Program-made: the position numbers and the translations under genes
Assembly (NCBI GenBank): GCA_964030785.1
Contig: OZ034969.1
Location: 32,041,601 to 32,105,600 of the forward strand
DNA: 64,000 nucleotides
Direction of reading: 5' to 3'
Source: Siderastrea siderea
Lineage: Eukaryota > Cnidaria > Anthozoa > Scleractinia > Rhizangiidae
The notes under the pieces: generated by a model
What the model was told of the DNA's origin: nothing
What the model saw: only the letters and a program-made list of their open reading frames with translations
Databases searched by the model: none
Shown here: positions 35,093 through 61,046 of the stretch, piece by piece
Position numbering within the stretch: position 1 is the stretch's first letter
Layout of the letters: the number at the start of each line of letters is the position of its first letter

Positions 35093-35169
35093 TAGTCCAG
35101 TTCTGGCCCCTCTCTCTTTGTCACGCAACGCCGGGAGAGAGGGTGCAGTGACAATTGTTTGCGCATGCC
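35093..35169. repeat. Left terminal inverted repeat (77 bp)
   Basis: It matches the complement of 60970-61046 with one difference (GGGTGCAG against GGGTCCAG). Within it CCCTCTCTC and GAGAGAGGG flank TTGTCACGCAACGCC, so the repeat itself can fold into a hairpin, possibly a transposase-binding structure. Confidence 0.9.
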
Positions 35170-35267
35170 CCAAATAAACCAATCACAGTAGACATGTTAC
35201 GCGCCAAATGCTAAACAAAACTGGCGCGAAAGAAAGCGGTGAAAATAGTTACGACAACTGAGCAAAA

Positions 35268-38200
35268 ATGGCGACATTGGCGAGCACAGACTCAACTCCA
35301 AAGAAAGTTAGCAAAGCAAACACAGAGGGATGTAAAATTTGTGGAACTGTTACTCTCGCAAATGCAAGAGTAATTATTTCAAATTCAAACGGGAAATCGA
35401 AAATTGGACAGGATTTTCAAGCGTACTGTCGTATCGATGTGGGCGCGGAGAAAGGAGTGACTGCGTATTGTTGCCGTGGCTGTAAATTGAAACCGGTCAG
35501 TACAAAATGCAGACTGCAGACTGCAGACTGCAGACTGCAGACCGGGTACAAAATGCAGACTAGGTACAAAATGCAGACTGCAGACTGCAGACTGGGTACA
35601 AAATGCAGACTGACATTTGAAACTGTTTTTTTCGTTTTTTTTTTTAATATTATTTCATTTTATAACTTACCGGTTGTCACGCAATCCCTTTTCCGATGTC
35701 ATATTTCACGAAAACTCGCATTACCGGGGAATGATCTTGCTCCATTACTCGAAACGAAAACGCTGAGTCATGATTTCATTTTGTGTAGCAATTGTGTGGT
35801 CATTCATGATCCGATGCGATAAAACCACAACAAATGTAAACAAACGGTCAGTCACGGAATCTTGTCCTCGAGAAATTCCCCCGATTTGACTTTTGTTATC
35901 TTCCTGGTTTGTTAATTAATAAGTACAGATAAAACACATTGCAAATGTAGGAAACTTAAACTTTCTTAATTTTCTCCAAAATATATTTTTGCTAACCAAC
36001 CATAACAATTAACACTGCTCCATTTGTGTAAAGTTCATTCTACCAGCCTGGCATAAGTTCACAACTCACCTGCGAGCAAGGGGGCGAAGGCACTTCTTCT
36101 TCACCACTGTCACGCGACACAGTGAAGTCAACCCGCGAACAAGACTAAGAGAAAATACAATCCGATCTAAAAGCTACAAAGAAATGGTAAAATACAACTC
36201 GACATCTATGCTCCTACTTCACATGCAAGATCTAAATTCTCTCACGAGGTATAAGTATTTTTATATTAACACACATCGGTTAAAGGAAGGTGATTCTACT
36301 TCGTCATTGGTCAATGTCGCTAAGGAGTCACGTGAGATATGCGCGCGAAACCAGAGCGGTCACTTGCAAGCGAACTTTGGAGTAGTTGCACGTAGAAATT
36401 TTCATCATGGCGAAAACGAACAATCCAGAAGATCCCGACGCAATAACGAACGAAAATCCCACTGAGGAAGCCGAAGACGAACTTCTAGAGGATCCTGAGC
36501 TCGACAATAGCGACTCGCTATTGAGTGTACTCAGTAAGTTGAACCAAAACATGGATCACATGGCGGGTTCATTGTCCGCCATGGGCGAAGCTTTCGCTTC
36601 TTTGTCGAAGCAGCGCCCAGCGAAGCGAGACGCTCGCTCTGGGAACTTAGACCCTTTAAATGGGGAAACAAAGAAACCTAGAATTGATGCCGGTGATGCT
36701 GTTGAAACTGGCGGTGACAGCGATGATTCGGACGTAATAGAGCTTCTTGCAACCAATGCTGAGAACGACTCCGAAGGCGCCAAAACGTCGGCCGCCAAAA
36801 CGCAGGACTCCTGCAACAATGAAGGCGAAGACGATCTTTTAAAGAAATTGGCCCTCGACTTCTCGAAAGATGATAAAGTGAGCAGCCCAATATCTAAGCA
36901 ACTTGCAGATATCATCAATAAGAGATGGGCTTCGAAACTGAGTGAGAACAAGGTCAAAGAGACGGTCGAGAAATACGATCGCCCTGAAAACTGCGAGAAG
37001 CTTGTTGCCCCCAAAGTGAACCCAGAGATTTGGGGAAAATTAACTCATCATGGGAAAAAGCAGGACCTCAGATTGTCCGCTATTCAGAACATGATAGTGA
37101 GGGTTGGAGCCATTATTGCACAATCAACCCAGAAGCTCATGGATTTTCGAGGCCAGAGCACGCAAGGTGGCAAGCTCGACACGGGCGCATTAGTCACAGC
37201 ACAAATTGATGCCATTGCCCTGTTGGGTCACACCAATTACGAGCTCTCGCTTCGTAGACGGGAAGCTATTAAACCCAACCTTAACAAGGAATACGGCTCG
37301 CTGTGCTCTTCGCAAACGCCGGTAACCAACTTGCTATTTGGCGACGAGCTTCAGTCGCAGCTTACGGCAATTCGAGCCTCAAACCGCATACAGTAGTGCA
37401 CAATAGCACCAACAAATCTTTCACCAAACCTCCTTATCGCCAAAAACAGGACCAGCCTTTTTTAGGCAAGGGCCATTTCCAGTCCAGATGGAAACCCCAG
37501 AAAACCTGGAAGAAAAAGGAGGACACCAGCAAGAAATAAATACTGCCGATGACATCATGACAAAGCTCCACACGTTACAGGTAACCCAATTTGAAGGCTT
37601 TATTCCTACACTTATAGCTTACCTTGTTACACAAACATGTTGCTTCAAAAGCAGTAGGCTGGCACAATTTGTTCATTGTTGGCAAAGAATCACCTCAGAC
37701 ACTGAGATTCTTCAAATGGTGTCAGGACAATACATTGAATTTGACACTAAGCCTTGCCAAACACGCCCCCCTGCAGTGAAATGTTTTAGTGCAGAAGAAA
37801 ATGCTATTATTTCCAGAGAGGTTGCAAACCTGCTTAAGAAGGCAGTTGTTGTTGAAACCAGTCATGAACCAGGGGAGTTTATCTCTTCTGTTTTTGTGCG
37901 ACCCAAAAAAGATGGATCACACAGAATGATCCTGAATCTTAAAAACCTAAATAAACATGTGCAATACAACCACTTTAAAATGGATACACTTCAAAGTGTA
38001 ATAAGTCTTATTACCCCTAACTGCTATATGGCCTCTGTTGACCTCAAGGATGCCTATTACAGTGTTCCTATTGCGGTTTCAAACCAGAAGTACCTTAAGT
38101 TTAAAGGGGGTGGTAAATTGTATCAGTTTACCTGTTTTCCTAATGGTTTAGCTTTCTGTCCAAGGAAGTTTACCAAACTAATGAAGCCAGCCTACTCAGT

Positions 38201-41200
38201 TTTGAGACAACTTAGGCATATAAACTCACCGTACATTGATGACTCATACCTACAAGGTGGAAGTTATGAGGAATGCCTAGCTAATGTTCTAGACACTGTG
38301 AAAATGTTCCTCTCATTGGGTTTCATTCTTCACCCTCAAAAGTCAGTTTTTATCCCTACACAAAAATTAGTATTTTTGGGGTTTGTCTTGGACTCAGTCC
38401 AGATGAAAATTTATTTGACCAATGAAAAAGTTGACAAGCTCAAATCAATTTGTACCAAGCTTATCAAGGCCAAAGAAACCACTATACGGGAGGTTTCAAG
38501 GGCCCTTGGGTATATGGTATCTAGTTTCCCAGGTGTCATGTATGGCCCGCTTTATTTCCGTCAGTTAGAGAGGGAGAAAACTCTTGCCTTAAGATATAGC
38601 AAGGGTGATTATGATGCTTGTATGGTAGTATCAGACAAAGCTGGTTCAGAATTATTGTGGTGGAACACACACCTTGAAGCCAGTTACAATATCATTAGTC
38701 ATGGGGAGCCTACTGTTGTCATGTCAACCGATGCCTCATCCACTGGCTGGGGCTGTGCCCTACATGATACCAGTACAGGTGGACACTGGACCGCAGAGGA
38801 AGCCAGAAACCACATAAACTATTTAGAGCTCCTAGCCATATCCTTGGCTCTTAAATCTTTTTCATCTATCATTAATGGGCAGCATGTGAAGGTCATGGTG
38901 GATAATATGACTGCCCTGTCTGATGTTAACCATATGGGTACTAGTAGCTCTGAAAAAAGAAATGACCTAGTCAAAGAAATTTGGTTGTGGTGTGCCCAAA
39001 GAAATATTTGGCTGACAGCTGTCCATATCCCTGGAGTAGAGAATGTGGAAGCTGATAAACAATCAAGACGGTCTCACTCACAACTTGAGTGGACACTAGA
39101 CAGAACTATTTTTAGGGACTGCATCATTGCAGCAAAGGTTGAGCCCAACATTGACTTATTTGCTTCCAGAATAAACCACCAGCTTCAGCCTTATGTATCC
39201 TGGCATCCTGACCCAGGGGCTGTGGCAATTGACGCATTTCATTTATCATGGAAGCAATATGTGCCTTACATGTTCCCTCCATTTTCTCTTATCTCCAGAG
39301 TATTGCAGAAGATCCAACAGGAGAAGGTTCAGGGAATTATCATTGTGCCGAAATGGCCAACACAAACGTGGTGGCCTGTCTTGATGAGAATGCTGGTCGA
39401 CAATCCAGTACTACTACCCAAAAGAAAGAAACTGCTGTTTCTTCCGAGCAGTCCAGAAAAGATTCACCCTCTATATCCAAAACTGGAGCTGCTGATGTGC
39501 CACTTGTCTGGAGATCACTTGAAAGCCAAGGAATTTCGACAGAAGCTTCCAGAATCATTGTGCAGTCCTGGAGATCGGGCACCACAACCAAGTACCAAAC
39601 TTACTACAAGAAGTGGGAATCATTCTGCTGTCGACGGAAAATTAATCCCCTTCAGGCCACTTTACAGGATGGCATAAATTTCCTTGGAGACCTCTTTGCT
39701 ACTGGTGTAGGATACAGCTGTATTAACACTGCACGTAGTGCCCTGTCATCTATTATTGTGCTTCCAGGGAGTGTTCACTTTGGTAGCCATCCACTCGTTA
39801 CCAGGTTTGTGAAAGGCGTTTTCGAAAGTAGGCCTTCCCTCCCACGATACAAAGAAATATGGGATGTAAACTCTGTCCTTAAGGTACTTGCCACCTGGAC
39901 TCTTGGAGTGGATTTAAGTCTGAGAGATATGTCCTGGAAGCTTACCATGTTGCTTGCCCTCTTGTCTGGCCAGAGAGTACAGACGCTGAAGGCACTAACT
40001 CTGACCTCAATGACTTTAACTGCAAACAAATGTGTATTTACCATTGAAACACCACTGAAGACCACTCGACCGGGCAAGCACCTAGGTCGAATTGAGTTTT
40101 TGGCATACGAGCCTGACCGGAACTTGTGTGTTGTACAACATCTACAAGCCTATATCGATAGAACATCTCACTTAAGAGGAGAAACTGACCAGTTGCTGAT
40201 TGGCTATCAGAAGCCTCACAAGCCTGTGTCAACTGACACTATTGCTCGCTGGATCAAGAATGCCATGGGCAAAGCAGGAATTGACACTAGTGTAGATAAA
40301 GCACATAGCACAAGAGCAGCTGCCACATCAGCTGCAAAGGGGAAACAAGTCCCTATTGACACTATCTTGTCTGCAGCAGGTTGGAGTAGTGAGAGCACCT
40401 TTGCTCGGTTTTATGATAAGCCTATCCAAGACACTGCCGCAAATTTTGGACATGAACTACTGCATAGTAGCCGTTAAATGCTTTTTACACAGTTGTATCA
40501 ACCAGAATTGTTTACCATACTGTTACTGTTACTGTTATGTTACTTGAAGAGATATGACATTTTGATGTGGTGTGTACCTTGTTACAGCACCCTGTTGATG
40601 TCTAAATTGCATTAAATAGATTGATGTTCATGGTTTTTGCTCATGATCATGACGCTTTAAAGTCTCACGTGACTCCTTAGCGACACTGACCAATGACGAA
40701 GTAGAATTGTAAAATTAAACGAAACTTACCTAAGTTGAAGTTTGATTGAGATTCTACGAAGTCATTGGTCTGGAGCTAAGGAGTCAGGTGCCCTCCCATC
40801 TGGGCTACCCACCCTACTGATTTACAACAGTCCTGATCATTCGCCTTTAAAGTGTGACCGCTCTGGTTTCGCGCGCATATCTCACCTGACTCCTTAGCTC
40901 CAGACCAATGACTTCGTAGAATCTCAATCAAACTTCAACTTAGGTAAGTTTCGTTTAATTTTACAATTTAACTGCTACTTACCGCATTAACCGACCTCCG
41001 AAGGCCGCCATGACGAACCGGCGAAGAGGCAAAGAAAGCGACCACGTGCACGGAAGGTCATGTGTCTGCTGGTTTCTCGGTATCATGTTGCAACGAGTGT
41101 TGTTATTTTATGTTATGCGATCTCGCGCTTGAAGTAAGAAGACTGAGAAGGCTTAAGAGTGAATGTCAGTAAAAATCAAAGAAAAACCGTAAAATTGCGG

Positions 41201-44200
41201 CCACGGTCAAAAAATCGATTTCGCTCATTTTTTGTCCACAGCAAGTTTAAGGTACTAAACAAAGTGAAATGGGGTTAGTTTTTTGAAATATCCATTTTGA
41301 ACAATATTAACGGTTAAAAACCATCTGATCGAATTTGGCGGTGCGCGAGCCCAAAATTTTGCACCTTTTGCAAGATTCCCGTTCCAAATAAAATACCACA
41401 GCCAGCCTTCTACAGCTACAAATGTACACACTGGGTCTTATTTAATTGGGATATGGTGTTCTTTTTCGTCTCAGGGTCTTCCTGAAGAAAAAAAGCACAA
41501 AGTTTGAAGTTATATTTTCAGCCGTTCGATTACACGCCAAAGCATGCCCGAAACAGCTTCGCAGAAATGTATGTGGTAGTGCATCAAAATGTCTAATATT
41601 GTAGACTTAGAGTCTTGAAACATAGTTCTAAAAAGTTATGGTTTTGTATTTCTGGAACCTTCTCATTTATGAATACGAACGCCAACTGAATTTTGGCAAA
41701 ACACAAGTGACGCCATAACGCAATTCAATAACATTAAAAGTGCGGCATGCGATAAACACGGAAATCTTCCGTTCAGTAACATCTAATATCTGATTAAAAT
41801 CACTCAAATTAGGTGAATCAGGTAAATAATATTGTTTTGCATCCCTCCTGTTAAATAAAGCTTAAATGTGTACAACTAAAACAGCTAAAATCGACCGATT
41901 ACACGCAACGACCGAATTAACATAGTCATGATTGAATCTTGTTTTATACACGCAAGCTCGGTTACATGTAACTGAATTATGCCGCACAGCACGAAACCAA
42001 ACTACTTTCACCGGGCCTCACAGCGATAAAATGACCTTTAGATCAAACCGTTTTGCCGATGTCTTGAAATTCACCTCAAAACTGGTGTATTTTATAATAG
42101 ATCACTGACTCAGTTTATGAGACTTACCAGCCTGACGGCTGTCAGTTGCCGATAACACGTAAAGCCAAGTCTTGTAAGCATCCCTCGTTGATTTTCTCCA
42201 CAAGCACTTTTTACTTTAAAAGTTCTCATTATGGACTTTTTACGGTCCGCTATCATTCTGGTTTGGACTCAAATAAGTCAAGAAACAATACCAACTGTTC
42301 CAATTCTTTCCCCCGTGACTACTCAAAATAGACGTGTCACGTAACATGCAGTTAGACGTAAATTGAACTTACTAAAAGAGACGTACCATAACTGAGAAAA
42401 GTGAGGCGGGGGTAGGGAATTTCGAGCTGCACAATTTTTTTTCGTTGGCATTTCCCTTGCAGGGATATTTTTTCCGTATTCAAGAACTTCTTTTCTGGGC
42501 TACTCGCCGAGTATGATTTTTTTTCTCATAACGTTCCCTTGCATGATTTTTTTTTGTTCTCCCCCGCCCCCCTCATAACTTTTCTAATGGTCCGTCCCTA
42601 ATGCGACAGCAAAGCAAACGGTAAACAAGAAAAACGCGCGCAAAATTATTATTTGTGAGTCTCGACTATTGAAGAAGCAAATGAAACACGCACAGTTGTT
42701 TACTCATGGGAAACGCTCATTGTTACCCAAGTAAGAAAGCTAAGAACCTCTTCGTTTTGTTTAAAATACTAGTGGCAAAAACTATTAATCAAAAAAGGGT
42801 CCCAACTTCGATAGAGAATGTTTTGCTCATTCTTCGTCTTTGCAGGTGGTGTTTGCGGCGTAGATAAGGCCATCCCCGTGAAATGTTTTGTTTCCCATCG
42901 CCCTCTCTCTTGCAAATGTGGGAGGGTCAGTCGGTAAAGGGCTAATTTACATGAAGTCACTTTGAGATGTGTACAAAACATAAATTCGGAAATAAAAGAG
43001 GAAGTGGAGAGGGAAACTAAATAACTCAGAAGCTTTCTATTTGTTTTTGTTAATGTTTTTTCTTTGGACTTGTTGAAAAAAAAATTGCGTAAGTGGGGAT
43101 GGCCTAACTGGCGACAGAAATTGTTCATCTGCGGACATACCAATATCATCCTGCGAAAAAGACATCAGTAGTCACAAGACGTTTTTGAAGTTCTCCAGGG
43201 TTGAAAAGGAAGCTGGTTTGATTTAAGCGAGATGTGGAATTTTTCAGAGTCCAAAGCATTTTTCGGAAATTGCCATTTGTCCGTCTTATTGATCAAGTCT
43301 TGGGATAGGATGGGGGTGAGCGAGAAATTATGTTGTGTTCCTCCAAAAATTCCGGGCCATAGAAAGTAGGTACCACAAGCGGAAAGAAAGATTAACTTGC
43401 TAACTTCCAGGAAGCTGTATGAACTAACAAAACAACATATCCCGGTTGTTTCTTGTAATTGATTATAGTTTTATTGTCCTAGCTTTTCGAATTTTCAGGA
43501 TAAATCCTTCCCATTCTGCTATTTTTTTAATCGACCCCACTCCTTCTCGTCTTCTATCCCTTGCTTCCAACTTCCCCCCACCCCGCCCCCCCCAAAAAAG
43601 AAAATTACTTATTAAAAACTGTAAGAAAATAGAGACTAGCTCAGCTGTCGCCCGTAAGTACTGAGTTTTTGCATTTGGCATTTCTGAATATAATCTGGGA
43701 TCTATTTTTACAACTTGATCATGATACTGAAACAAAAAATGGCCGAAAAAAACATAGCCTGCATAGCAAGCATTTCCGAGTGAAAATTGCACCCGCTCCA
43801 ATTTTTACGCGGTATAAAAAGCAAAAAATGCTTCCAACCTGCGGAAGACCCTACAGAAACGCTTGTTACGAAGGCTAAAAAACCTAAAAAACACGATGTT
43901 GAGAGGACAACAGGATGGTACGTGTGAGGTGTATAAGAGGATCTGTTTCAGGACGGAAAAGTTAGAGGATAACCTGCGCACTCACGACTCAAATTTCTTT
44001 CCTGCGTTGCGGCAAAGATGCGGGTAGGCTAGTTAGTGGATATTATACTGTTCCCTGTCTGTGAACTAAACGTACAAATCCACTTTGTGCAACGTAAATA
44101 AATATATTTGTGTGGTTTCAGATTTGCGAGGAACTTGTTTTTTTTTGCAGTATAACAGTATAACCAGGCCACATTTAGTCAAAGCCGACGGTTTGTTTGG

Positions 44201-47200
44201 ACGGAGCCCTTACTCATCCTCCTGCATATGCCTGCTGTCTAAAACAACGTCAGTAGCAGAAGCGAAACAGAAGTGAAATTTCTCGAGGCATGTGCGCAAA
44301 GCTACTTGAACGCGCAACACTGGAACACTCAACGGCAAATACTGTTTTTTATAGCAGACAAATTGTCTCTCAATGAGTTACGACAATTCTTCCCAACGAT
44401 CACCAGGTATCGCTACAATATCGCGCGACTCCATAGCTTGTTTCATGGGAGGGCTGCTCCCGTACCTCGTAATGAGACCAGAAGAATGCGAACTAAGCCC
44501 ACAAAGACTTGACTTCATTTATTACGAGTCCCCACGTATTTTTAGGATGTCCTTTTTAGCGAACAGTTCCTGAAAATGCCAACATGTGAGACAATAAGAA
44601 TTCCAAACGTTATCAGCTAGAACGAGAACGTCAGAGCGTATTGGTCAACAATATCAGCAATATTGTTGTTAGACCAACTTCGAGTCTAAGAGCAAGAGAA
44701 CACTAAACAGAAGTCTGGCTGCATGTTGGGCTTCTGTTTGAGAGTCTATCTCCTTTTTAGGACAGGAGTTCCTTGCTAGCTTAGGACAAACGTGCTAGCT
44801 CGAGAGTGAGCACTGGGATCTGATAGTCTTATTTCATGGGCCAAGTTCGAAGGAGCTGTACAATCACCAATTTAAGTTCTAGTTCCTCCATTCCAGCGTA
44901 TAACAAGTGGGCGAGCTTTTAGAGCTGTCAGGCACAGACACTTTAAGAAAGCCTCTCTGCACTCTTCTTCAGAATACCTGCCTGGAGGCAATTTTAATGA
45001 CAGGGAGGAGGGCTTGGTCTTCCCTGCTCTGAAGAAAGAAGCGTGACAGCGTACGGCCATTTTACCTACCTGTAGGCATACCGCGATAAAATAAGAAATA
45101 AAATAGCACTGTAAGAGGAAACTCTGTATGATAAAGCAACGAGATTGTACGCTTGTAAGTTGACGGAGGTTTACGAATGAATTCGTACTCTTCAGAGTAA
45201 CCTGCAGACTGGTGATGGATAACCGCCGCCTACAAAGGGTTGGGCCTTGAAGACTATCAGAAAGGAGACGTAATTCACTGGCAAGCAGAAAAAAATCTAA
45301 CGGAGCAGTTTCAAAAATGAGGGGAAACTGGACATAAATGTAATCCTTACGACGTCAGTGAGGGACCAATCGGGGCGTGTCGATTTCAACCCGACAAGGT
45401 CTCAGTGCACAACAGATCACAGGCTTCTTTGGTCGTCTGCCAGCTAAGAAACGCTGAGTGGAAAAAGCAGGAAAAGAGTGTGATAATGATGATACCGACC
45501 CTGCAGCTTAAGCCGAGGCTTACCATTGTGCATAGCCTGCTACTTATTGTAATAAGGCCGTGGAAATTCAACTACGGAAACCTGTTCCAACAATGCCTCA
45601 ATGTTTGGCGTTCCCCGTTGTTTTGTCATAAACCGGTCTGTGGATTCAATAAATCCTGTGCCTACACGTTCAGCAAGTCAGCAAGCTTAAAAACATTGCA
45701 GCTAGTGTGAAAGACATTGACAGCCTCACCTCTCCCCCACCCACCCCCTTCTCTAACGAGCGAACCACCTCATACTCATAGTCTGTTCGCGTCTCATGAA
45801 ATAACTTTCTTTTGTTCTAGCCTTATGTACAAGGAAGTTATGTTTACTTTACTTCATTTTTGCAGAAAAAGCGAATGCGAATTATCTGGTCACCAGAAAC
45901 CGGATAGGCAAAATCCGTCACGAATGTACGATCAGGCGTTGCGTGACATACCAATGTGTTGATCTTCAATCTATCCGGCTCGCACCTGTTGTGGAGTTTC
46001 GGTTTATCGTCGCTCGTTTCAACCAAAAACCAAAGTTTAAAATTTTTCCCAAAAGCATTCCTTAATACATTTAAGATGTATTTTTATGGACGTTTCGAAG
46101 GAAGCAGTTAAAGTGCCGACATGTCCTAAACTGATTGGAAATAATACTGTCTGTGAAGACTCGCGAAGGAAGTTACGGTACGTTATTTGTAGATACCTTA
46201 AATTAACTTGAAAGAGTATAAGCAAAACAATGTAACAAGGAACGTTTGAAAAGTTTACGTTGATTTTTACGAGGCAAGTTGCCGTATTCGTACCAAACAT
46301 TTTTCTTGTTGAACACATACTGAGCGCTTTGTTGTATTTGAACATGACGCCATTTGTAATTTATCAGAAATTCACTTTGTGTTTGCATTCCAATATTAGA
46401 AGGTCCCAGAAAATTAAAACAACAATAATGAAGAACCATCTTTAAAGTATCCCTGGATAAAGACTGGAAGATTTTAATGCACTACCACATGCATTTTCGT
46501 GGAGCTACTTTGGTCCATGTTTTTGGTGTTTTTTACATTTCTCAAATGTCGCCTCGCAATCCATGCCTTGCTCTTACGAAAACAACGTGAGACAAAAAAT
46601 ATCGCTATATCTAGAATGAAGAAGGCCCAATATGTTTATTTATAGTAAGGGAAGTCTGGCTGTTACATTTTAATGAACGTAGGAACTACCTGAAAAGTGC
46701 AACATTTCGAGGTCACGTAAACTGAAATTTGAATTTTATAGGTCGGTTCAGTTTTTAACCGTTTATTCCCGGTAAACAGAATATTTCAAGAAGTTAACCC
46801 CATTTCACTTTCTTACATACATTAAGGTTCCTGTAGACAAAGAATGAGACAAATTGATTTTTTGACGGTGGCCGCGATTTTCTAAATTTTCTTTGATTTT
46901 TACTGACATTCACTCTTAAATCATGTTTAAGAACAAATTGATCTTCGAGACTTCGTTTAAAAAGTATATTTCGAGTAATGGAGCAAGATCATTCCCCGGT
47001 AATGTGAGTTTTCGTGGAATATGACATCGGAAAAGGGATTGCGTGACAACCGGTAAGTTATAAAATGAAATAATTAAAAAATAGAGAAAAACGAAAAAAA
47101 ATACAGTTTCAAATGTCAGTCTGCATTTTGTACCCAGTCTGCAGTCTGCATTTTGTATCTAGCCTGCATTTTGTACCCGGTCTGCAGTCTGCAGTCTGCA

Positions 47201-50200: not shown

Positions 50201-53200
50201 TATGTAACAATATTTAATTAGTGAAAACTTTTCTTGTATAATGTTATTTTATAAAGTTGTAGAAGAGTTGATATCATGTAAAACAAAAATGCAATCAGAA
50301 AATTTCAAATTCCAGTGCACCTGTGAACATCTAAATGCAGTAAATGCCTAAAATGTGTGCAATTCCAAAATTTAATTTGCATGTTTTTCATACTATTTCA
50401 GGCTAGGGATTTGATGGTTGATGCCACTGATGCACACTGTATATCTGCAGCCATTAAGTACTTTGGTCTACAAAGCCAAGATGATGACCCAAACAAAAAC
50501 TTACCACCTTCCCAGCAAGCAAATGCTAAAGTGAAAAAGGAATGGCTGTACCAAAGTGCTAATGCCATATTAGACAGCTATGTGATGGCAGACATTCGCG
50601 AAATTCACTATAATGTTGAAGGTAAAAAGAAAGGGATTCCCATGACATTAATAATTTATGATTTAATTAACGAATATAAGCATTTAAGTTTTTCAAGTAT
50701 TACAGGGATTTTAAAATGAGACATCATGACATTTAAGCATATCATCTCTAGCAGCTTATCAGAAGTCACTTGGGATTTTATTCCAGGCACCCCTTCATTA
50801 TAGCAAATGCTTTCTTCATATCTTTATCATCATCATCATCATCCTCATAATAATTAAAAACAATATTATAATTATAATAAGAACCTTCCCAGAATGCTTT
50901 GCACCAGAAAAATTTCAATGCAAAATAACTTAGTTAATTTGTGGTCGAAGAGAATGCTGTACCATGTGTTATTTACAACTTCGTGAAAGTTATCCCTCCT
51001 ATTAACGTTAGGGTGATGACGTCATTATTCACGTGACTATGGCAAAAATATGTTTTAGCTCACTGCAAGAACAGGCCTCCATCAATTCAAAAGCAGATAA
51101 CGTGCCCTGATAGACATTGGAATGGGCAATATGGAAATTGCCACTTGACATCTGGCATTTGAAAGTTAAGGTGGCTCTGTACAGGAGCATTTCCCAGGGG
51201 ACTGGTAAGGAGTCAGTAACTATGGTAGTTTAAGGCGGAGAGAAACAAAGCTTGGCTGGTTAATAGTACTTCGCATGAAAGTAACGACCATGATATGCTC
51301 ACTGTTGTGACGTCATTGGTCACGTGACCAGAGCGCACAGAAAATTCAAACCACTTTAAAACTGCTTTAAGCTCAATGAATTCGTAATTTCTCACAGTAA
51401 TATCGCAGAAAAAATTGGAAGTTATTCAAAAACGTCCATTATTATTTTTCCTTTTGAAAAAAGCACAATGAAAAATGAACCTTAAACTTTTGATAATCCC
51501 CTGTTTTGTGAGGTTTTAATATAAATGTAAAAACGAATCAGCATATTTGGTTTCAAACTATGCTCTTTCTAACTATGTTAACAGTTTTTTTAAAAAAATT
51601 CGTTTTCATAGAGCTTAGGGATGTGAATTTGCGGGCACGCGGAGTACTGGGCACCAATGTCACGGATTGCTCAGGAAGACTGGTGCACTTTTTAGGCGCG
51701 GCGGCATAGCTAGCGACAAAAGCTGAAAAATGGGGTGAAAAGGTGTTTTGCTAGCTTTCTGTCGGTCCATTTCTGCTAAAGAATTGTTATGGTTTCTCCG
51801 AAAGAGGACAGCGCTTCATTTCTCGCTGCATTGCTCATGTCAGGTACGTGTAATTATAGCTTTTTATTGTCTTCGGTAAACAGCTTAATATATTAGCAGG
51901 GCTTTACCGATCGATCATTTTTGTTTAATGTTTCATATTTATCGTTAGTCCAGTGCTTAAATAATTTGCCATTTTCGTTCCGGTAGCAAAAAGCCGAAAG
52001 ATAGACACGTAGGTTGGTAGCTAAAGTTTATTAAGTTTCGTAAGTCTTTAAATAAACGTCATATGAAGTGATGTAGTTTTTGTACACTCGTCTGTGAATC
52101 GTACATGTATGTTATTTGTTGGCCCAGTAAAAGTGTAGCATCGCATCCCGGCTTTATGTTTTCAGTAACTTTAATTACAGCGTTGCTGTTAAAATTAATG
52201 TTTCAAACAGCTATTGCTTAAAGCAAGAAGGTCAGGCTATTCTCCTAATGTTGATACTGGCAGATAAGCTTAAATTCTTTTGTGTAGCATCATTCAAGCT
52301 TACGTGTTGTAAACATCTCATACTAACAACATAACATAACATAACACATAACATACTTTATTTTATCTCCATCTCCATTTGTTTATTAGCTGGGCTTTTC
52401 TTCACTGCTTGCAAATTATTTATACACATCTAATGACTCACGAATGTTTCTTAGATCAAGTAAGGTTCAAAGCTATAGTTGGCATGATTTGATGACAAAC
52501 AACAAATTTAAATTTCGAATTAGGTACATGTAAGACTTTTATTAAAAGTTATGTGTTGATCACTTTTGGGAAAATATGCTTAAGATAATCGAGTTCAAAG
52601 CAGGTGAATGTAATTGTTTTGTACATCTCGTTCTCTACTTTTACTGATTAAGTTTTTCCATAATTTGCAGGGTAAAAAATTAACTTCAGTGCTTGAATCA
52701 TTGAATTGCAACTCGGGCCAGTATCCTTGAATTCCAACCTCGTCCCCAGGGTCTTTTCATTCGCTCGCTTAGTATAGTGGACCAGGCCATTTAGATAAAG
52801 TGGCTTTCAAAATCCTCTAGTCTAAATCAAAAAATTTAAAACCATATTTACTTGAATAGACCCCTCCCAACCTGGGTGAGAAGTAAGTCTTTTATCCAGG
52901 GATTTCGCCAATAATCATGTGGAAAAAGTACCACATACTGTAGAACTCTAAGTAAAAACAAACCTCAACTTTTAGTGGCCCTGGTCAGTTTTAAATTGCT
53001 ACTGGCAACCAGGAGACTGTCAATTTTTAGCCCTGAAGTTGTTGTTTTCACTGATCCTTTTTTTTATCTATACTAGGCATGGTATATGTCAGCAGTGATC
53101 AGTGATGCAGCTTTTCTTACAGTGAAGGTATGCACATGGAAGATATCAATCACATAATTATCCCAGCTTACGTACTATCTTACTGTTCAGTAAAATGAAC

Positions 53201-55540
53201 TAGGTCAAATGTAATGATCGGTTTAATTTGGGTTCGGTAGTTGAACACAATTAAACCAATAATATGCATACAGCAGTGTTTGATTCCAATTTCTGAACCC
53301 AGTCAAACATAATTGAGCACAGTTAAACAGTTTAAAATCATTCAAATATACCAGAGATTTAAACCATCTGCCTTTAAGTGTGTGAGAACAAGCACAAATT
53401 TCTTTAGTGTGGAATTTGAACATCATCTGTTTTATATTGTCGTGTAAACACATAGAAGACTGGGTGGCTAAAACAGCCTTTTCGGAAAAAGAAAATTTGG
53501 CAATCCTAATACTCACAAAGGCAAATAAAAGTTGAACCAAGGAAAAAATTAAATCACAACATTTACATGAGTGTTCCATCAAGACTTCCATTGGGGTAGG
53601 TGATGAAAACCTTATACCCACTTAAGTTACAAAATCCATTTTTCATGGTCAGTGATGTAAGATTTATTCTTGATGGTTAAAGGGTTAAAACTTAATGCAG
53701 AATGAATCAAACAGTTATACCATGTATGGGTTTCTGTACCACAGTGATTATTGTGACCCAGTACCACTACTGGGGCAAGCTCACACAGGTATGACTTGTA
53801 CAGTTATGAAATGTTGTGCTGTAATCATTAAATAAATACAGAGAAACAAGAGGAAATCGGGAGGAACTTGTACCAGAATGAAAATCATGCTTGTATTATG
53901 AAAACACCCCCTTAGCCTAAAGTCGAGCAGCTCTCAAGAATGTTTAACAACATCCTCAGAGACCCAGGGGCAGTAACGCCCTGATTTCATGAGACCGGTA
54001 CAAACTCAGACTGGTACAATTTTGTTTACATGAGACCGGTCTAAAAGTCAGACTGGCATTAAGTGTTTACCTGAGACCAATCTAAACTATGTTTGTGTTA
54101 ATATGGTCTGCAACCATCCCATCCTTAAAAATCCACTTTATCTATTATCCAACAGCTTGGAATGTTCCAACGCCACTTATTAAACGTGCATACCCAAAAC
54201 AAACATCTCAGACCAATTGGAACCATGTTCATGCTTAAGTGGCTCCCCGGTCTGATTTCAAACCGTTCTGAGTCATTCATATTGGTTCAGCAGCAGTGAT
54301 GAGCTAAACCAGCCTAAGGCCCTGTTTACATGAGTGACTTTATCCCGGGATGACTTTTATCTCCTCCGAGGGTGACTTTCATTGCGGTGTCTGGTCATTT
54401 ACCTGTAAATGTTTACATGATTTGGAGCTGAAATGTGTTCACCCTGGGACGATTTCATCCCGGTCTTCAGCACGGGGATGAAATCGTCCTGGGGTAAACA
54501 CCATTTCAGCTCCAAACCATGTAAAAACTTACAGGTAAATGACCAGACACCGATATGAAAGTCATCTCGGGATGAAATCACTCATGTAAACACAGCCTAA
54601 AATGATAATTATTTTATACTAGCTTCATGTCTCGTACGTTTTGTGTAAACAGAGGTAAGCATTTGGAGTCGATCTGAAGTCGTACCGGCCCAAGTTGGTA
54701 CCATTCTCATAGACTACGAGCAGTCTCTCATTTTTCTCTGGCGCGTGCACACTGACTGTTTTACTATTGGTAATTGTGATAATTAAAATCTGCTTTGCTT
54801 TTCTTACAGGTTTTTATTCCATCAACCTGATGTCAGGAAAATATGGCAGTTTATTGTAAGGGTTTGGTTAAGAAATTTGTACTTTTAGCTATATTCCCAG
54901 ACACACTTTATCAATTCAAATAAAAAATTTGAAGAGCAGTTTTGAAATAAGGTTATATATTTTTTTGTCTTTTTCTGCTTAACATTTTGATGTCATTGAT
55001 TAGTTTGACTGACCCCTCAGTACTACTAAGTGGATGATGTATGAAAATGGAATGAATCCTGGAGTACCTTTTAGGGCTCTACTTCAAAATATCTGATGAG
55101 CACACCCTGCCCCATATCTTTTTTGGGGGGAGTATCCCCCCCAACTACTATCCCAGGAATGAAGAGTCAGACCTATTTGATTGAATTCTCTTTATGGGGA
55201 AGACTATATCGATTGACTGATTCACCAGTCTGATCCATTTTTGTCAGTTCATTGCCTATTAGGTTTCAGACTATTCTGAAATGATTTAGGAAGAGGCTAT
55301 TCCTTTTGTTTTTCTTTGTTACCAGATTATGGCAATCAGTAACAATGCTTATTGGTGACAAATTATCAAACCAAAAACAACTAAAGTCTCAAGATCTACT
55401 GCCATCACGGTCAGGGTAGTAAGAGAGTGAGTCATAATCTGTGCATCAAATAAAGTCACTAGTCATTACTGGACCATTTGTTATTCGCATTGGCAACACT
55501 GAAGTCACAGATTGATTGATTTATTGATTTATGGATTGAC

Positions 55541-55577
<37 letters not shown>

Positions 55578-56338
55578 TTTTAATTGGCTGATTGACTGAT
55601 TTATCAGCCAGTTGGTTGAGTGGTTGATTGATTGACTGATTGGTACTTAAAATAGATGAATGAATTGATTCACCTGAATTACATGTAAGTAATTACATGC
55701 ATAATGCTGCACTTCTTCGCATCTTCCTCTGGCAGTAAAATAATACCTGGCATCAGTCGAAACATAAAATAATTTTCAAGCCCCAATGTCATGACATAAT
55801 TGTAAGCAAATAATTTATTTGTAATTAGCAAGTAGTAGGTAAGAAGGCGTATTAGAGAGCAGGACTATTAGACCTTTTACAGTAATTTAAATTATATTTC
55901 ATATTAACTCCAGTAAGCTACTCCTTCTGAGTAACTACACTATTGGACAGTCAAGAAAGAAAGCAATGCTCTGGGTTGTTTTAGGGTTCACTACTTCCTA
56001 CTATTAATTAAACTTCCCGGGGAATTAATACAAGTAAATAAGGTACATCATCATCATCATCATCATCATCATCATTCAACTACAGCGTCATTTTACCATA
56101 TAAGGAGACAAATATGAGTATGAGAGCATCTTACACTGTAGAAAACGTATTGCACTATAGTATCCCGGTTTCAAATCACTTATTGAATAAAGCATTTACA
56201 ATTTTGCTTAGATATTTAAGTTTATATTACCTACAACAGAGGCTTATTTAAAATTTATGAAACACTGGTTCTAATTTGATGAGAGGTGTATTACTTATGA
56301 TTAACTAATAATTATAATATTGTTTTCCGGTCTCACTT

Positions 56339-56383
<45 letters not shown>

Positions 56384-58285
56384 GTAAGAATAATAAGAAT
56401 GGCAGTTTTAGCTAAGTAATAACACTAAGATAATTCTGTAAATTAATGTTAGAAGAAGCAAATAAGCAAATATAAAATAATAAATAAAATAAAAAAAAGA
56501 AAGTAATCACTGATTATTAAAACGAAAATTGTCTTCCTTTTTTTTCAGTCTCTTGCAATAAACAGACCAGAAGAAGTCAGTCAAGACAAAACAGAAGAAA
56601 TGATGCCTATGCTGGTAATCATTCATTAAATTTAATAGCATCCTATGAAGAAGACAAAATTATATTTGGTTAAAATCCAAGTAATGACCTAAATGGCTTC
56701 CTTGTGTCCAAATGTGAATGAAAGCTGCAACAAATGAAGTGTTGTTATAACAAGTAATATAACAAACTATAATATTTCCTTGAAAGAGTGCCGCCATTGC
56801 CGCATTTAAAAGCAATAAATAAGCACATCACCCTCCAGCAACAGCACTATGCTTATTGATTTTTTTGACATTGCTAATGCTGATTATTATTGCTGTTGTA
56901 TTTTTTTGGATCTGGAAGGAGACATAGATCTTCAAAAACTAATTTTATTGAGTCTTTCTATGCTATTTGAACAAAACAAAGGAAAAGAAAGAAATATGAG
57001 TCGAAAAATATTATTAAATAAGTGCCAGGGTGCTCTTTCGAGTAAATACGGTGTTGAGGCCCGGGGGGGGTACTCCCTTCTTATAGTGGGCTATACGGGG
57101 AGGCTCCGCCCAAAAGGGGAGTCTTTTTTAAGCTAACAGTATGTAAAAGGGTAGGGAAAATTGCCATTTTAGTATACGAAAGGGTCACAAAATCAGTTGC
57201 AAAGTGGAAGAAATGGTGGCTAAAGCGAAGTATATCAAAGGGTACCACATTTTGGCAGAAGTGACTATGCAACTGAATCAGAACAACTGAAATACTATTG
57301 TTTTGGCTTATCCTTGAGGTACAAAAAAGGGGTGCAAGTTTACTCTAGGTAGATGAAAGGGGTACCATTTTGGTAAAAAATAGTATATTAAAGGGTAAGG
57401 GTTTGAACCTCTGGGCGGAGCCTCCCCCAAAGAAACTTTATTGAGTAGCCCCCTGGGTATTAAGGCCAGTTTTGATTATCCTTAGGGGTGCAATCGAGCA
57501 CTTCCTTTCTACCCTGGCTGTCTTCAGCAGACCCGACAAGTGAGGCAAGCTCTGTATCAACCTCAGATGTTGAAGAGACCTCTGAAGGAACAGAGGACTT
57601 TGTCCACAATTATGCCTGTTCATTATTGTTCCTTGGCATGCTTGTTAAGTATTATGAGGACGCCATAAAAGAAGGTGATGCGAATAGGGAGGAGAAGTTT
57701 TGGAAGATAGCCATGCTTATTTTCAAAGCAAGAATCAACAACCAATCCAACAGAGTCAAGTATGCCTTTGAGTCATTCAAGTATCTGGCCCTAACTAAGG
57801 CAGTCTTGCCTCCACAACTTGCCATGAAGCTGAAATGGGGACGGTTTGTCAATTTAAAGGGAGGAGCAAATAACATGGAATGTGACCGACGGTTGGAAAG
57901 TGAAGTGCGCAGTGTCAAAGACAAACTGGATGGAATGGGAAAAAATCTCAATCCAACAAGTGCTCAACGCAGTGCAAGATCATCAAACAACACAAACTTG
58001 CTAGTTAAGAACTTTGACAACCAATGTCAAGTTCACCCTCAAGTTTTAAGCCATAGTAAAGTGAGTAGAGAATTGGATTTACAGATAATGGTAAATGATA
58101 TTCTCCGACAAGATGTCTTTGAGTACATTCCTGGAAGGAAACATTCTGCCTTTCCAACACACACCAGGTCGCCAGTGCAAAACCTCTCTGCTAGTGCTCT
58201 GCTTAAGTGGATGAAAACACTAAGGAGAAAATTTGCCCATGGCAACCTGTCATTTCTTGCTGATGAAAATGAAGTTGGGGACTAA
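35268..58285 (+). CDS. DUF6589-like transposon protein (probable transposase), six exons, interrupted
   Basis: Proposed exons are 35268-35493 plus 47239-48197 (one exon split by the nested element), 48710-48924, 49185-49692, 49911-50030, 50402-50621 and 57486-58285. All junctions are GT-AG and the phases agree, giving about 1,015 residues. The N-terminus has paired cysteines (CKIC, then YC and CCRGC) like a zinc-binding module. The centre has GGDQLTCERA and ESWHAKM, then TLYQLRC and DATDAHCISAAIKYFGL. The last exon has GRFVNLKGGANN and a C-terminal PGRKHSAF. I recognise this as DUF6589-like, a family common in cnidarian transposon-type proteins; the catalytic role is inferred. Exon 1 is disrupted by 11.7 kb at 35494, so this copy is probably inactive. 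The final 6.9-kb intron is unusually long and may hide other exons. Confidence 0.75.
36407..37396 (+). CDS. DIRS gag-like protein
   Basis: The frame is open from 36386; the Met at 36407 ([11 protein letters not shown]) or the earlier one may be used. It encodes about 329 residues, with an acidic N-terminus ([15 protein letters not shown]) and an NLS-like KKPRIDA. A helical region follows with [38 protein letters not shown], a pattern typical of DIRS first frames in cnidarians as I recall them. It presumably packages the RNA intermediate. It lies just upstream of the RT frame. Confidence 0.8.
   Translation: [329 protein letters not shown]
37488..39677 (+). CDS. DIRS reverse transcriptase / RNase H
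   Basis: A 729-residue open frame. The RT palm is seen as FVRPKKDGSHRMILNLKNLN, then MASVDLKDAYYSVPI and the YIDD catalytic box at about residue 250, then LGFVLDS. RNase H follows (MSTDASSTGWG, with NYLELLAISLAL and MVDNMTAL). The C-terminal part (IDLFASRINHQ, WHPDPGAVAIDAF) is the DIRS-type extension. A methyltransferase-like role has been proposed for part of this region in some DIRS elements, but I cannot confirm it here. The 3' end overlaps the recombinase frame by about 430 bp in another frame. Confidence 0.9.
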   Translation: METPENLEEKGGHQQEINTADDIMTKLHTLQVTQFEGFIPTLIAYLVTQTCCFKSSRLAQFVHCWQRITSDTEILQMVSGQYIEFDTKPCQTRPPAVKCFSAEENAIISREVANLLKKAVVVETSHEPGEFISSVFVRPKKDGSHRMILNLKNLNKHVQYNHFKMDTLQSVISLITPNCYMASVDLKDAYYSVPIAVSNQKYLKFKGGGKLYQFTCFPNGLAFCPRKFTKLMKPAYSVLRQLRHINSPYIDDSYLQGGSYEECLANVLDTVKMFLSLGFILHPQKSVFIPTQKLVFLGFVLDSVQMKIYLTNEKVDKLKSICTKLIKAKETTIREVSRALGYMVSSFPGVMYGPLYFRQLEREKTLALRYSKGDYDACMVVSDKAGSELLWWNTHLEASYNIISHGEPTVVMSTDASSTGWGCALHDTSTGGHWTAEEARNHINYLELLAISLALKSFSSIINGQHVKVMVDNMTALSDVNHMGTSSSEKRNDLVKEIWLWCAQRNIWLTAVHIPGVENVEADKQSRRSHSQLEWTLDRTIFRDCIIAAKVEPNIDLFASRINHQLQPYVSWHPDPGAVAIDAFHLSWKQYVPYMFPPFSLISRVLQKIQQEKVQGIIIVPKWPTQTWWPVLMRMLVDNPVLLPKRKKLLFLPSSPEKIHPLYPKLELLMCHLSGDHLKAKEFRQKLPESLCSPGDRAPQPSTKLTTRSGNHSAVDGKLIPFRPLYRMA
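39248..40477 (+). CDS. DIRS tyrosine recombinase
   Basis: A phage-integrase-family recombinase that takes the place of an integrase in DIRS elements. The catalytic set is present: Arg in SGQRVQTL (about residue 241), HSTR (about 351), Trp in AAGWSS and Tyr in ARFYDK (about 388). The N-terminal SAM-like core-binding part is seen as TKYQTYYKKWESFC. The true start is probably downstream of the first Met, because the first ~100 codons overlap the RT frame. It would integrate a circular intermediate without a target duplication. Confidence 0.9.
   Translation: MEAICALHVPSIFSYLQSIAEDPTGEGSGNYHCAEMANTNVVACLDENAGRQSSTTTQKKETAVSSEQSRKDSPSISKTGAADVPLVWRSLESQGISTEASRIIVQSWRSGTTTKYQTYYKKWESFCCRRKINPLQATLQDGINFLGDLFATGVGYSCINTARSALSSIIVLPGSVHFGSHPLVTRFVKGVFESRPSLPRYKEIWDVNSVLKVLATWTLGVDLSLRDMSWKLTMLLALLSGQRVQTLKALTLTSMTLTANKCVFTIETPLKTTRPGKHLGRIEFLAYEPDRNLCVVQHLQAYIDRTSHLRGETDQLLIGYQKPHKPVSTDTIARWIKNAMGKAGIDTSVDKAHSTRAAATSAAKGKQVPIDTILSAAGWSSESTFARFYDKPIQDTAANFGHELLHSSR
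40660..40966. repeat. DIRS internal complementary region and right inverted terminal repeat
   Basis: Block one (about 40665-40715) is the complement of the left end (tcacgtgactccttagcgac). Block two (about 40716-40795) is the complement of the right end (ctggagctaaggagtcagg). The right terminal repeat itself follows at about 40850-40966. The three copies differ slightly, so they have aged a little since insertion. Confidence 0.85.
40967..46741. other. Interior of the 11.7-kb element, no gene recognised
   Basis: Beyond the DIRS element the sequence holds one arm of the inner inverted pair (41153-41330). A probable MITE lies at about 42375-42603, with imperfect inverted ends around gggcgggggagaac and gaggcgggggta, and there are scattered short open frames. 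None of these frames (for example 42769-43149 or 44872-45060, minus strand) shows a family that I know. The region could be captured host DNA. Confidence 0.45.
47239..48197 (+). CDS. Exon 1, continuation of the DUF6589-like gene
   Basis: Right of the nested element the reading frame resumes in phase after the 10-bp duplication. The Met at 47232 is not the real start; it overlaps the duplication. The segment is Lys/Ser-rich (ESPQPKKTC, EKENSSHND), then Pro-rich (LPLPTQF), then a helical region with SEDQ-type polar residues and AMAAGILLKARNKDMCMVQ. The donor is chosen as ATG|GTGGGT so that phase 0 matches the next exon (GFARLNKLE). Confidence 0.75.
48710..50621 (+). CDS. Exons 2-5 of the DUF6589-like gene
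   Basis: Exon 2 (48710-48924) encodes DFDADVKKWIESPQDKH and ends in phase 2 before GTGAGT. Exon 3 (49185-49692) opens FLSMAFKGRISFANLP and carries the GGDQLTCERATG block expected for the catalytic core. Exon 4 (49911-50030) encodes VLWNEKSAKDIGTLYQLRC. Exon 5 (50402-50621) encodes DATDAHCISAAIKYFGL and VKKEWLYQSANAILDSYV. The introns are short (about 220-370 bp) and AT-rich. Confidence 0.75.
54318..54597. mobile_element. 280-bp foldback MITE, Harbinger/Tourist-like
   Basis: The arms of about 135 bp are inverted nearly end to end, starting GGCCCTGTTTACATGAGTGA at the left. A 3-bp TAA flanks each end (54315-54317 and 54598-54600). Three-base TWA targets with GGCCCTGTTTA-type ends fit PIF/Harbinger MITEs. 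It lies in the long intron. Confidence 0.75.
57059..57460. mobile_element. ~400-bp inverted-repeat MITE just upstream of the last exon
   Basis: The ends (CCCGGGGGGGTACTC at the left; gagtagccccctggg at the right) are inverted, followed by the inner pair GGAGGCTCCGCCC and GGGCGGAGCCTCC. The motif aaagggtac/aaagggta recurs inside. It belongs to a widespread repeat also seen in part at about 21815. It sits 25 bp from the acceptor of the last exon. Confidence 0.7.
57486..58285 (+). CDS. Last exon of the DUF6589-like gene
   Basis: The acceptor ccttag precedes GGGTGC. Joining to exon 5 in phase 1 keeps the frame. The exon encodes an acidic Ser/Thr-rich linker, then a helical segment (FLGMLVKYYEDAIKEG, KFWKIAMLIFKARINNQSN), GRFVNLKGGANN and a basic C-terminus ending NEVGD. 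It ends 606 bp before the convergent RecQ gene. Confidence 0.75.
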
Positions 58286-58890
58286 ATTAAGTCTTAAGTT
58301 TCATATGATAATAATAGCATAGATTATTGAGTCCTACATTAAGTGTCAGCTGTAAAAAAAAAACCATGCAGGCAGAATACACATGCTACACTTTGATTAC
58401 GTGGCAACAGCGTACAAAAGAGCCTTTTTGAAACTCCTGTTATCTGACCCAGACACATCTTCTGATTATATTAACATGCATTAAATACCACTAGTAAACA
58501 CTTCACATAGTTTGGCTTCAGTACAATTAATATCAAGTTGCAATTTTGGATCGATAACTGAATTATCAGTAAGGTAAAGGGCATAGCTGGGTGGAGGGGG
58601 TCCTAAGGTGCCTGAGACCCTCCCTTTATTAAGAAAAAACTAAAACAACCGGGACATTAAGACCCCCCCCCCCCGAAAAAAAAAAGAAATTCATGCTTAT
58701 ACGTAAGTGTTAGATAATTCAGTGGAGAATGCTGGACATTGCATTTCCAAGAGCTGAGGGGAGAGGTAGGGAGATGCACTACCACATCCCAATAACAAGA
58801 CCAAGTACCCCCTCTTAAAAACCCTGTCTATGCCCCTGAACATTAATAAATAACGGCACTACAGAAAAATACATGTATCTAGAAAACTAT
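58286..58890. other. Convergent intergenic space
   Basis: The 605 bp between the stop of the DUF6589-like gene and the stop of the RecQ gene hold a poly-C run at 58665-58675 and no gene. It must contain the poly-A signals of both genes; aataaa-like strings are present but are not assigned. Confidence 0.5.
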
Positions 58891-60889
58891 TCATTCCAGC
58901 CTTGCATTTCTTAATTGCTGGATTAAAGACATCACATGATTAGCTTGTACATTATCCAACACATCTACTTTTGCATGGATGTCTTCAACACAGTTAACCT
59001 CATCACAAACTGCCACAATCTGTTCTATAAGCTCTTCGGAAAAACCAGTTGACAGATCACTTCCAACCAGTAGGACATCTTGACTCAGTGAGTCTTTGTA
59101 ATTTTGCAGTGCTTTCTTTAGTGTTTCTTTGCAAACAGAGGAATTACCGGTAGGAATATTAATAGCACTTTTGGACTGTGCCTGCTGAGTGTGATTCTCC
59201 GGGTGTTGTAACTTCTTGACACATTCGTCACATTTACACAGTGGCAAACAAATGTCACAACATTCATGTTTTGTTAAAATAGAGCACTCTTCTTTTGCCT
59301 TTTCAAGATCATCAAAATGTTTTAAAAGACAAAATCGCCTGCAAAGCTCAGAATTTTCACAATACCCTTTCGTTGCCTCAAGTTCTTTCAATTCATTCTC
59401 ATTGGCAGCTTTAGTAATTTTTGCTTTTCTAACACCAAACTCTTTAGCAGAGAAAAAGAGAATGGCCTGGGACGCCTGGATGTCTCTACCTGCCCTGCCA
59501 CTCTCTTGAATGTAACTTGTCAGTGACGCAGGTGCCCTGAAATGTACTACTTTACGAATATCTGGGCAGTTCACCCCCATTCCAAAAGCAACTGAGGCAA
59601 TAACTATTCGAACACAGCCACCTTTCTCTCTGAATGAATTGAGAATTTTTTTCTTGAGGGAGTCACTTGTAATTTTGACATAAATTTCAACAAGTCGTTC
59701 CTTTTTACCTAGGTCAAACATATGCTGACCTAGCTCCCTTTCAAAGTATTCATAAACCTCACAGCAGTCTCTGTGGCTGAAGCAAAATATAATCCCTCGC
59801 TCTGCAGAAATACCATTTTCTTTGAGATCTTCAATTATTGGTTGAAAACACTTTGTAAAAGCCATTTCCATCCGTTCATAGTCATTGTCTTGGAATGTAT
59901 CAAGTCTCGAAACAGAATAGAAAATATTTCTTCTATTGTTTGAACCTTTGATGAGTGAAAAATTTTCCATGTTAAGTTTTTGGACTATATATGCCAAACT
60001 TGCTTCAGTTACAGTAGCTGTTAGGGCCATAAGTGGTAACTTGGGTAGCAAGAGAGCTCTCACTTCCCCTAGCGTGCCATAAGCGCTTCTGAAGTCTTTG
60101 CCCCTTGAAGAAAGAGGTCAACAACAGTTATCAGATTTATACAGTTTAATAAATCTTCATCTATAATAATTTACCAGGTACTTGTAAAATGTATCTTTAA
60201 AATAATTTCACATAGGGGTCACAGTGACTATGCTGTGCTTTCATTTAAGGATAGTTAATTCAAATTTCTGGCCTCTTGTATAGAGATTAAAGAAAATAAA
60301 CTAAACAATACGTGTTGGGAAAAAACATCATGAAATATTAATTAAATAATACTGACCACTGCTCGATACAATGCGCTTCATCTATGGCTACGAAGTGAAT
60401 CCGCTCCTTCACTGACTGAAGTGCAGTCCTCACGACAACACACTCAAATGACTCCGGCGAAAGGATGGCGACCTGAAAATCACCTCCTCGAAGTCTGCCG
60501 ATGGTTTCTTCAGATATGTCAGGTGTGAGTTTTAAGCATGACAAACCAAGTTGACTTAGAGAAAATATTTGATCGTCCATGAGTGCCTTCAGCGGAGATA
60601 TTAAAACTAAAATGCTTCGCTGTTCCTTTGAAGTGACACCGCGTAAATTATCGCAAACAAGTGGACACAACGCGTAGCATAAACTCTTACCATAACCGGT
60701 GGGCAAGTTTACAACAACGTCTCTTCCCTTTAGATAATAGTTCAAAGCCTGAATTTGTTCCTTTCTGAGAAGAAACTGCAGTCCACAAGAAGAAACGGCC
60801 GAACTCAATGCATTAATAAAAACCTGATCGTATTCGGGAAACATTTCTCGGTACTTTTCACTGACCGAAGAGTGAGAATCGACCGCCAT
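58891..60889 (-). CDS. RecQ-family DNA helicase encoded by the transposon
   Basis: There are two exons, 60889-60357 and 60103-58891. The intron is GT-AG and splits the Trp codon after DEAHCIEQ. The product has 581 residues. Motif I (LPTGYGKS) is at about residues 62-69 and DEAH at 170-173. Exon 2 opens GKDFRSAYGTLGEVR, then MALTATVTEAS (III), GIIFCFSHRDC (IV), IASVAFGMGVNCPDIRKVVHF (V) and QESGRAGRD (VI). A Cys-rich RecQ zinc region follows (GYCENSELCRRFCLLKHFD, CCDICLPLCKCDEC). No HRDC domain is seen. The helicase core is complete and should be an active 3'-5' helicase. Placement 157 bp inside the terminal repeat marks it as a transposon gene, not a host gene. Its role in transposition is inferred. 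Confidence 0.9.
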
Positions 60890-60969
60890 ATTGAAACACT
60901 GTCGTCCGTAGGAAAATACATGCGCAGTGGGGATTAGCTAGAAAAGTAGCTAAAACTACTGCGCATGCT

Positions 60970-61046
60970 GGCATGCGCAAACAATTGTCACTGGACCCTC
61001 TCTCCCGGCGTTGCGTGACAAAGAGAGAGGGGCCAGAACTGGACTA
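60970..61046. repeat. Right terminal inverted repeat (77 bp)
   Basis: It is the inverted partner of 35093-35169 and ends GGCCAGAACTGGACTA. The 9-bp target duplication follows at 61047-61055. Confidence 0.9.

What the first reader, a model, noticed from the sequence alone, without database searches (positions are those of the whole stretch)
35093..61046. A 26-kb DNA transposon with a DUF6589-like protein and a RecQ helicase
Seen: 77-bp inverted ends with one mismatch, an exact 9-bp target duplication (CGAAAACTA) and an interrupted retrotransposon frame that returns to phase if the element is removed. Also seen: two convergent multi-exon genes that start 175 and 157 bp from the two ends. Known: the helicase motifs are those of RecQ; DUF6589 is, as I recall it, common in cnidarian and fungal mobile genes. 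Inference: the two genes form one transposition machine, with the helicase unwinding ends or replicating the element. I do not know a described superfamily that combines these proteins with a 9-bp duplication.
Basis: partly seen in the sequence, partly recalled or inferred. Interest (0 to 1): 0.92.

Follow-up and report, generated by a model that had tools for sequence, protein, structure and literature searches.

The report
Coral AcademH-type transposon with RecQ helicase
This is a real mobile DNA element that carries its own probable cutting enzyme and a DNA-unwinding enzyme; it most likely belongs to an already described group (AcademH), and it links a protein family of unknown function (DUF6589) to transposition.

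Summary
In detail: 35093-61046 has 77-bp inverted ends with one mismatch, an exact 9-bp duplication, and two convergent genes starting 175 and 157 bp from the ends. The "26 kb" misleads: two later insertions (35494-47228; about 50.88-56.34 kb) sit inside an element whose uninserted copies are 8.83 kb. The first splits an exon of the DUF6589 gene, so this copy is probably dead. Five further coding copies examined carry both genes. Eleven insertion sites give duplications of 9 bp (nine), 10 bp (one) and 8 bp (one). Genome-wide, 33 of 66 listed RecQ-like sites lie within 5 kb of a DUF6589 match, 33 of 33 convergent; 0.08 expected. A predicted fold of a sponge DUF6589 protein ranks 28 DDE recombinase entries first. 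In print, AcademH has a helicase and 9- or 10-bp duplications, and RecQ helicase is reported in Academ. So this is most likely a new AcademH family. The gap: no Academ transposase reference was available.

The parts
35084..35092 (.). left copy of the 9-bp target-site duplication CGAAAACTA
35093..35169 (+). left terminal inverted repeat, 77 bp
35268..35493 (+). DUF6589 gene, first part of exon 1 (ATG at 35268; Cys-rich N-terminus), cut by the nested element
35494..47228 (.). nested element, not part of the transposon proper: inverted ends of about 260 bp, 10-bp duplication AAATTGAAAC at 35484-35493 and 47229-47238; holds a DIRS-like element with RT and tyrosine recombinase at about 36.3-41.0 kb
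   Evidence: no match in the other copies fetched
47239..48197 (+). DUF6589 gene, rest of exon 1
48710..48924 (+). DUF6589 gene, exon 2 (proposed first catalytic Asp, motif DNID)
49185..49692 (+). DUF6589 gene, exon 3 (proposed second catalytic Asp, motif GGDQLT)
49911..50030 (+). DUF6589 gene, exon 4
50402..50621 (+). DUF6589 gene, exon 5 (donor 50614 or 50621)
50884..56340 (.). second insertion, about 5.46 kb, in an intron at an AT-rich microsatellite; edges approximate; absent from the 5 other coding copies examined
57486..58285 (+). DUF6589 gene, last exon (proposed catalytic Glu); start uncertain (57486-57545), and a small extra exon at 56549-56614 is possible
58891..60103 (-). RecQ-like helicase gene, exon 2 (Helicase_C, RecQ zinc-binding)
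60357..60889 (-). RecQ-like helicase gene, exon 1 (DEAD box; ATG at 60889)
60970..61046 (-). right terminal inverted repeat, 77 bp
61047..61055 (.). right copy of the 9-bp target-site duplication

Best explanation
It is an AcademH-type DNA transposon (Academ superfamily, helicase-bearing lineage), about 8.8 kb when uninserted, here probably inactivated by a nested element inside an exon of the transposase gene. Working model: the DUF6589 protein is a DDE transposase with an RNase H-like core interrupted by a helical domain. It binds the 77-bp inverted ends, frees the element, and joins it to target strands cut 9 (rarely 8 or 10) bp apart, so gap repair makes the duplication. The element-encoded RecQ helicase helps by unwinding ends or by processing the strand-transfer or gap-repair intermediate. 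Shown by sequence: ends, duplications, two-gene linkage, related copies without genes. Supported by prediction: the DDE fold and triad. Inferred: the helicase step and the excision route.
Confidence: 0.82

Rival explanations
1. A transposon superfamily of its own, defined by DUF6589 transposase plus convergent RecQ, merely similar to AcademH in helicase and target size.
For: No reference Academ sequence was available to show kinship; no XPG-DUF6589 pairing within 15 kb in the lists from this genome; no held paper contains the term DUF6589.
Against: Helicase plus 9/10-bp duplication is the published signature of AcademH, and RecQ is the helicase reported in Academ.
Confidence: 0.1
2. The RecQ gene is a captured host gene carried as a passenger, not part of the transposition machine.
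For: RecQ genes are normal host genes; half of the listed helicase sites have no DUF6589 partner in the list.
Against: 33 of 33 linked pairs share the convergent layout although their helicases are only 32-38% identical to the window's. The helicase groups apart from the rows named Bloom and Werner and the bacterial RecQ rows with support 100/100 and shows dN below dS.
Confidence: 0.06
3. A KolobokH-like element (Kolobok lineage with RecQ).
For: KolobokH encodes a RecQ helicase, and Kolobok-1_CCri has RecQ on the opposite strand (PMC9587614 passages).
Against: Kolobok makes TTAA 4-bp duplications; here nine of 11 sites have 9 bp and none TTAA. KolobokH is reported from fungi only.
Confidence: 0.02

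Closest known systems
AcademH (Kojima 2020, Mobile DNA 11:15; paper not held, known here from its title and from passages of PMC10045372, PMC10799480 and PMC3627910, and from recall)
   Same: Helicase gene in the element, 9- or 10-bp duplications, reported in animals and fungi (title); RecQ helicase reported in Academ.
   Different: Ends and transposase could not be compared.
AcademX (nuclease lineage of Academ; XPG type recalled)
   Same: Same superfamily as AcademH according to PMC10045372 (passage).
   Different: 3- or 4-bp duplications and a nuclease in place of the helicase; no XPG match within 15 kb of a listed DUF6589 match here.
KolobokH
   Same: DDD/E transposase with an accessory RecQ helicase.
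   Different: TTAA 4-bp duplications; reported only from fungi.
hAT (Hermes), P element, RAG1/Transib transposases
   Same: Predicted fold of a DUF6589 relative resembles theirs; conserved His between the second Asp and the Glu.
   Different: No sequence match in the PDB profile search at E <= 1; no helicase partner and other target sizes (both recalled).

Membership tests
AcademH | element encodes a helicase (RecQ reported in Academ) | tested here: met
   DEAD, Helicase_C and RecQ_Zn_bind; present in 6 of 6 coding copies examined, the window included; literature passages
AcademH | 9- or 10-bp target-site duplication | tested here: met
   11 sites: nine of 9 bp, one of 10, one of 8; second family 9 bp
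AcademH | DDD/E transposase | tested here: inconclusive
   Fold second look: 28 top rows all DDE recombinases; conserved D, D, E; Foldseek alone not significant
AcademH | transposase falls inside the Academ transposase clade | not testable with these tools
   No Academ reference sequence held
AcademH | no XPG nuclease gene in the element (that marks AcademX; recalled) | tested here: met
   Pfam scans of the element's main exons and the genome-wide XPG_I list show none at this element or its 5 other copies
KolobokH | TTAA 4-bp duplication | tested here: not met
Zisupton / KDZ | 8-bp duplication (Zisupton, PMC12730594 passage) | tested here: not met
   1 of 11 sites has 8 bp, nine have 9
Mutator/MULE | MULE-type transposase domain | tested here: not met
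   Pfam scan of the 930-residue protein gives only DUF6589 at E <= 0.01; 9-bp size alone would fit (recalled)
Helitron | no target duplication, no terminal inverted repeats (recalled) | tested here: not met

The most novel reading that the evidence does not exclude
DUF6589 plus convergent RecQ defines a separate DDE transposon superfamily, hidden in plain sight as a Pfam family of unknown function, in which an element-encoded RecQ helicase is an obligate part of a 9-bp-stagger transposition machine, possibly replicating or unwinding the element during transposition.
Probability: 0.1. Interest if true: 0.65.

Novelty: new member of a known kind. Interest (0 to 1): 0.35.

Why it matters
It assigns a likely job (DDE transposase of helicase-bearing transposons) to Pfam DUF6589, a term found in no held paper. 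It also shows a genome-wide DUF6589-RecQ pairing, convergent in 33 of 33 linked sites, that makes the helicase's role in transposition testable. A second family with at least 40 exact copies of its end suggests recent activity. As a transposon class it is most likely already described.

Tried and rejected
One 26-kb element: rejected, since two later insertions make up about 17 kb of it. XPG pairing as a route to Academ: 23 XPG_I matches, none within 15 kb of a listed DUF6589 match; the one XPG locus I read looks like a host EXO1-type gene (name recalled). A second structure model (pLDDT 57) was too poor and was not searched. PDB sequence search with the DUF6589 profile: no match at E <= 1; the viral fold library gave none at E <= 0.001. 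A dN/dS comparison of the long first exon failed because the ungapped copies were out of register and was dropped. Literature: seven paper searches; the AcademH paper itself is not held. DUF6589 homologue searches were thin, 3 and 11 proteins; only about 8000 candidates sharing most words were scored in each.

Full report
What is there. The outer element runs 35093-61046 with 77-bp inverted ends (one mismatch) and an exact 9-bp duplication CGAAAACTA. Joining the flanks gives a frame that reads in phase across the junction, with a stop about 20 codons on after which the same frame continues. A DUF1759 match lies further into the right flank, in another frame; I read the interrupted sequence as a decayed BEL/Pao-type retrotransposon (recalled). 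The DUF6589 gene begins 175 bp from the left end and the helicase gene 157 bp from the right end, facing each other. DUF6589 is matched along almost its whole profile (12-406 of 410, E 2.5e-38), and the 581-residue helicase has DEAD, Helicase_C and RecQ zinc-binding domains.

The 25,954-bp span contains later insertions. 35494-47228 is a nested element with inverted ends of about 260 bp at 92% identity and an exact 10-bp duplication AAATTGAAAC; it sits inside exon 1 of the DUF6589 gene and holds a DIRS-like element with reverse transcriptase and tyrosine recombinase domains. A second insert, about 50.88-56.34 kb, lies in an intron at a microsatellite and is absent from the 5 other coding copies examined. 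Two uninserted copies elsewhere in the genome are 8,828 and 8,836 bp. With its first exon split, this copy is probably dead.

Copies in the same genome. The window lies in an 831-Mb assembly. The 77-bp end has 41 listed matches (a lower bound; 187 candidates, 40 scored), 30 of which came as short loci. I fetched 20 longer stretches around some of them, six extensions and one XPG locus. Five other copies with coding content (C1 at 32.94 and 32.81 Mb, C6 at 35.77 Mb, C1 at 80.11 Mb, C8 at 13.70 Mb) carry both genes convergently. The first two share identical flanks and duplication, so they are one insertion duplicated later, or two haplotypes; their helicase gene has a frame break. The C8 copy and the C1 copy at 80.11 Mb are decayed, and the latter lacks 24 bp of one end. 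A further close helicase relative at C6 42.41 Mb (86-92% identical) was not examined. Distinct sites with both ends in hold, the window included, are eleven: nine duplications of 9 bp, one of 10 and one of 8; three loci with the same duplication on C5 were counted as one site without checking their outer flanks. Sites with only one end in hold were not counted. Copies without these genes (102 bp; about 1.1-1.27 kb, with ends about 82-87% alike) have the same duplication size. In the comparisons kept, both genes show fewer replacement than silent changes: helicase residues 179-581 dN 0.009 / dS 0.020 and 1-178 dN 0.005 / dS 0.034 against the C6 copy; last DUF6589 exon dN 0.002-0.015 / dS 0.018-0.060 against four copies, the fifth having a stop. 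The counts of changes are small (4-19), and the comparison of the long first exon failed and was dropped.

A general pairing. DUF6589 has 103 listed matches in this genome (418 candidates) and the helicase 81 (1333 candidates, 75 scored). Merged into 102 and 66 sites, 33 helicase sites lie within 5 kb of a DUF6589 site, at gaps of 1.0-2.7 kb, and 33 of 33 are convergent; about 0.08 are expected, and 1000 random placements with a 10-kb limit, on the 11 contigs whose lengths I had, gave at most 2, mean 0.18. Of the other 33 helicase sites, six are the copies of this family shown directly to hold DUF6589 exons, which the family scan did not list. The remaining 27 are unresolved and may include host RecQ genes. 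69 of 102 DUF6589 sites had no listed helicase partner; both lists are truncated. A second family on C8 has unrelated 72-bp ends at 100% identity, duplication CCAGAGTCA, a RecQ-like gene on the minus strand and a DUF6589-like fragment. Its end has 40 scored matches, all exact (346 candidates), several in pairs about 4.3-4.9 kb apart.

The helicase. Its closest listed relative is a Montipora foliosa protein, 73% identical over 54% of the query, so the genome is probably a stony coral (inference). In a 29-row tree it falls in an 18-row group whose named members are invertebrate helicases, apart from the rows named Bloom and Werner, a carp row, the bacterial RecQ rows, three named fungal rows and one unnamed row, with support 100/100. 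The tree is unrooted and 28 of its rows were my choice from 120 listed hits.

What it is. Passages of PMC10045372 say AcademH makes 9- or 10-bp duplications, AcademX 3- or 4-bp, and tie the difference to helicase versus nuclease. A passage of PMC3627910 lists RecQ helicase in Academ. PMC10799480 passages place AcademH in fungi. The defining AcademH paper is not held, so its sequences and termini could not be compared. KolobokH also carries RecQ, but Kolobok makes TTAA duplications (PMC9587614 passages). The best filing is therefore a new AcademH family, with the transposase-clade test open. No held paper contains the word DUF6589.

How it works (inference beyond the above). A DUF6589 DDE transposase acts on the inverted ends and joins them across a 9-bp stagger; the RecQ helicase assists by opening ends or processing intermediates. 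The copies without genes suggest that the ends suffice in cis. Whether the donor is excised or copied is not shown.

Noticed in passing
window 35494-47228: Nested element with inverted ends of about 260 bp carrying TGCAGAC tandem repeats and a 10-bp duplication; apart from the DIRS-like element inside it, the two ORFs tested gave no Pfam match, so its class is open.
   Followed up: partly
window 2451-32032, minus strand: Array of related genes; six of the seven ORFs tested match protein kinases (PF00069), probably a local host gene expansion.
   Followed up: partly
L041 2078-6956 (G000 C8): Second helicase/DUF6589-type family with 72-bp ends 100% identical and a 9-bp duplication; 40 of 40 scored matches to its end are exact, a sign of recent activity.
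   Followed up: partly
G000 C1 32.81 and 32.94 Mb: Two full copies with identical flanks and the same duplication 127 kb apart: segmental duplication or haplotype duplication in the assembly.
   Followed up: no
window 50884-56340: About 5.46-kb insertion at a microsatellite, unclassified; parts of it recur in L046.
   Followed up: no
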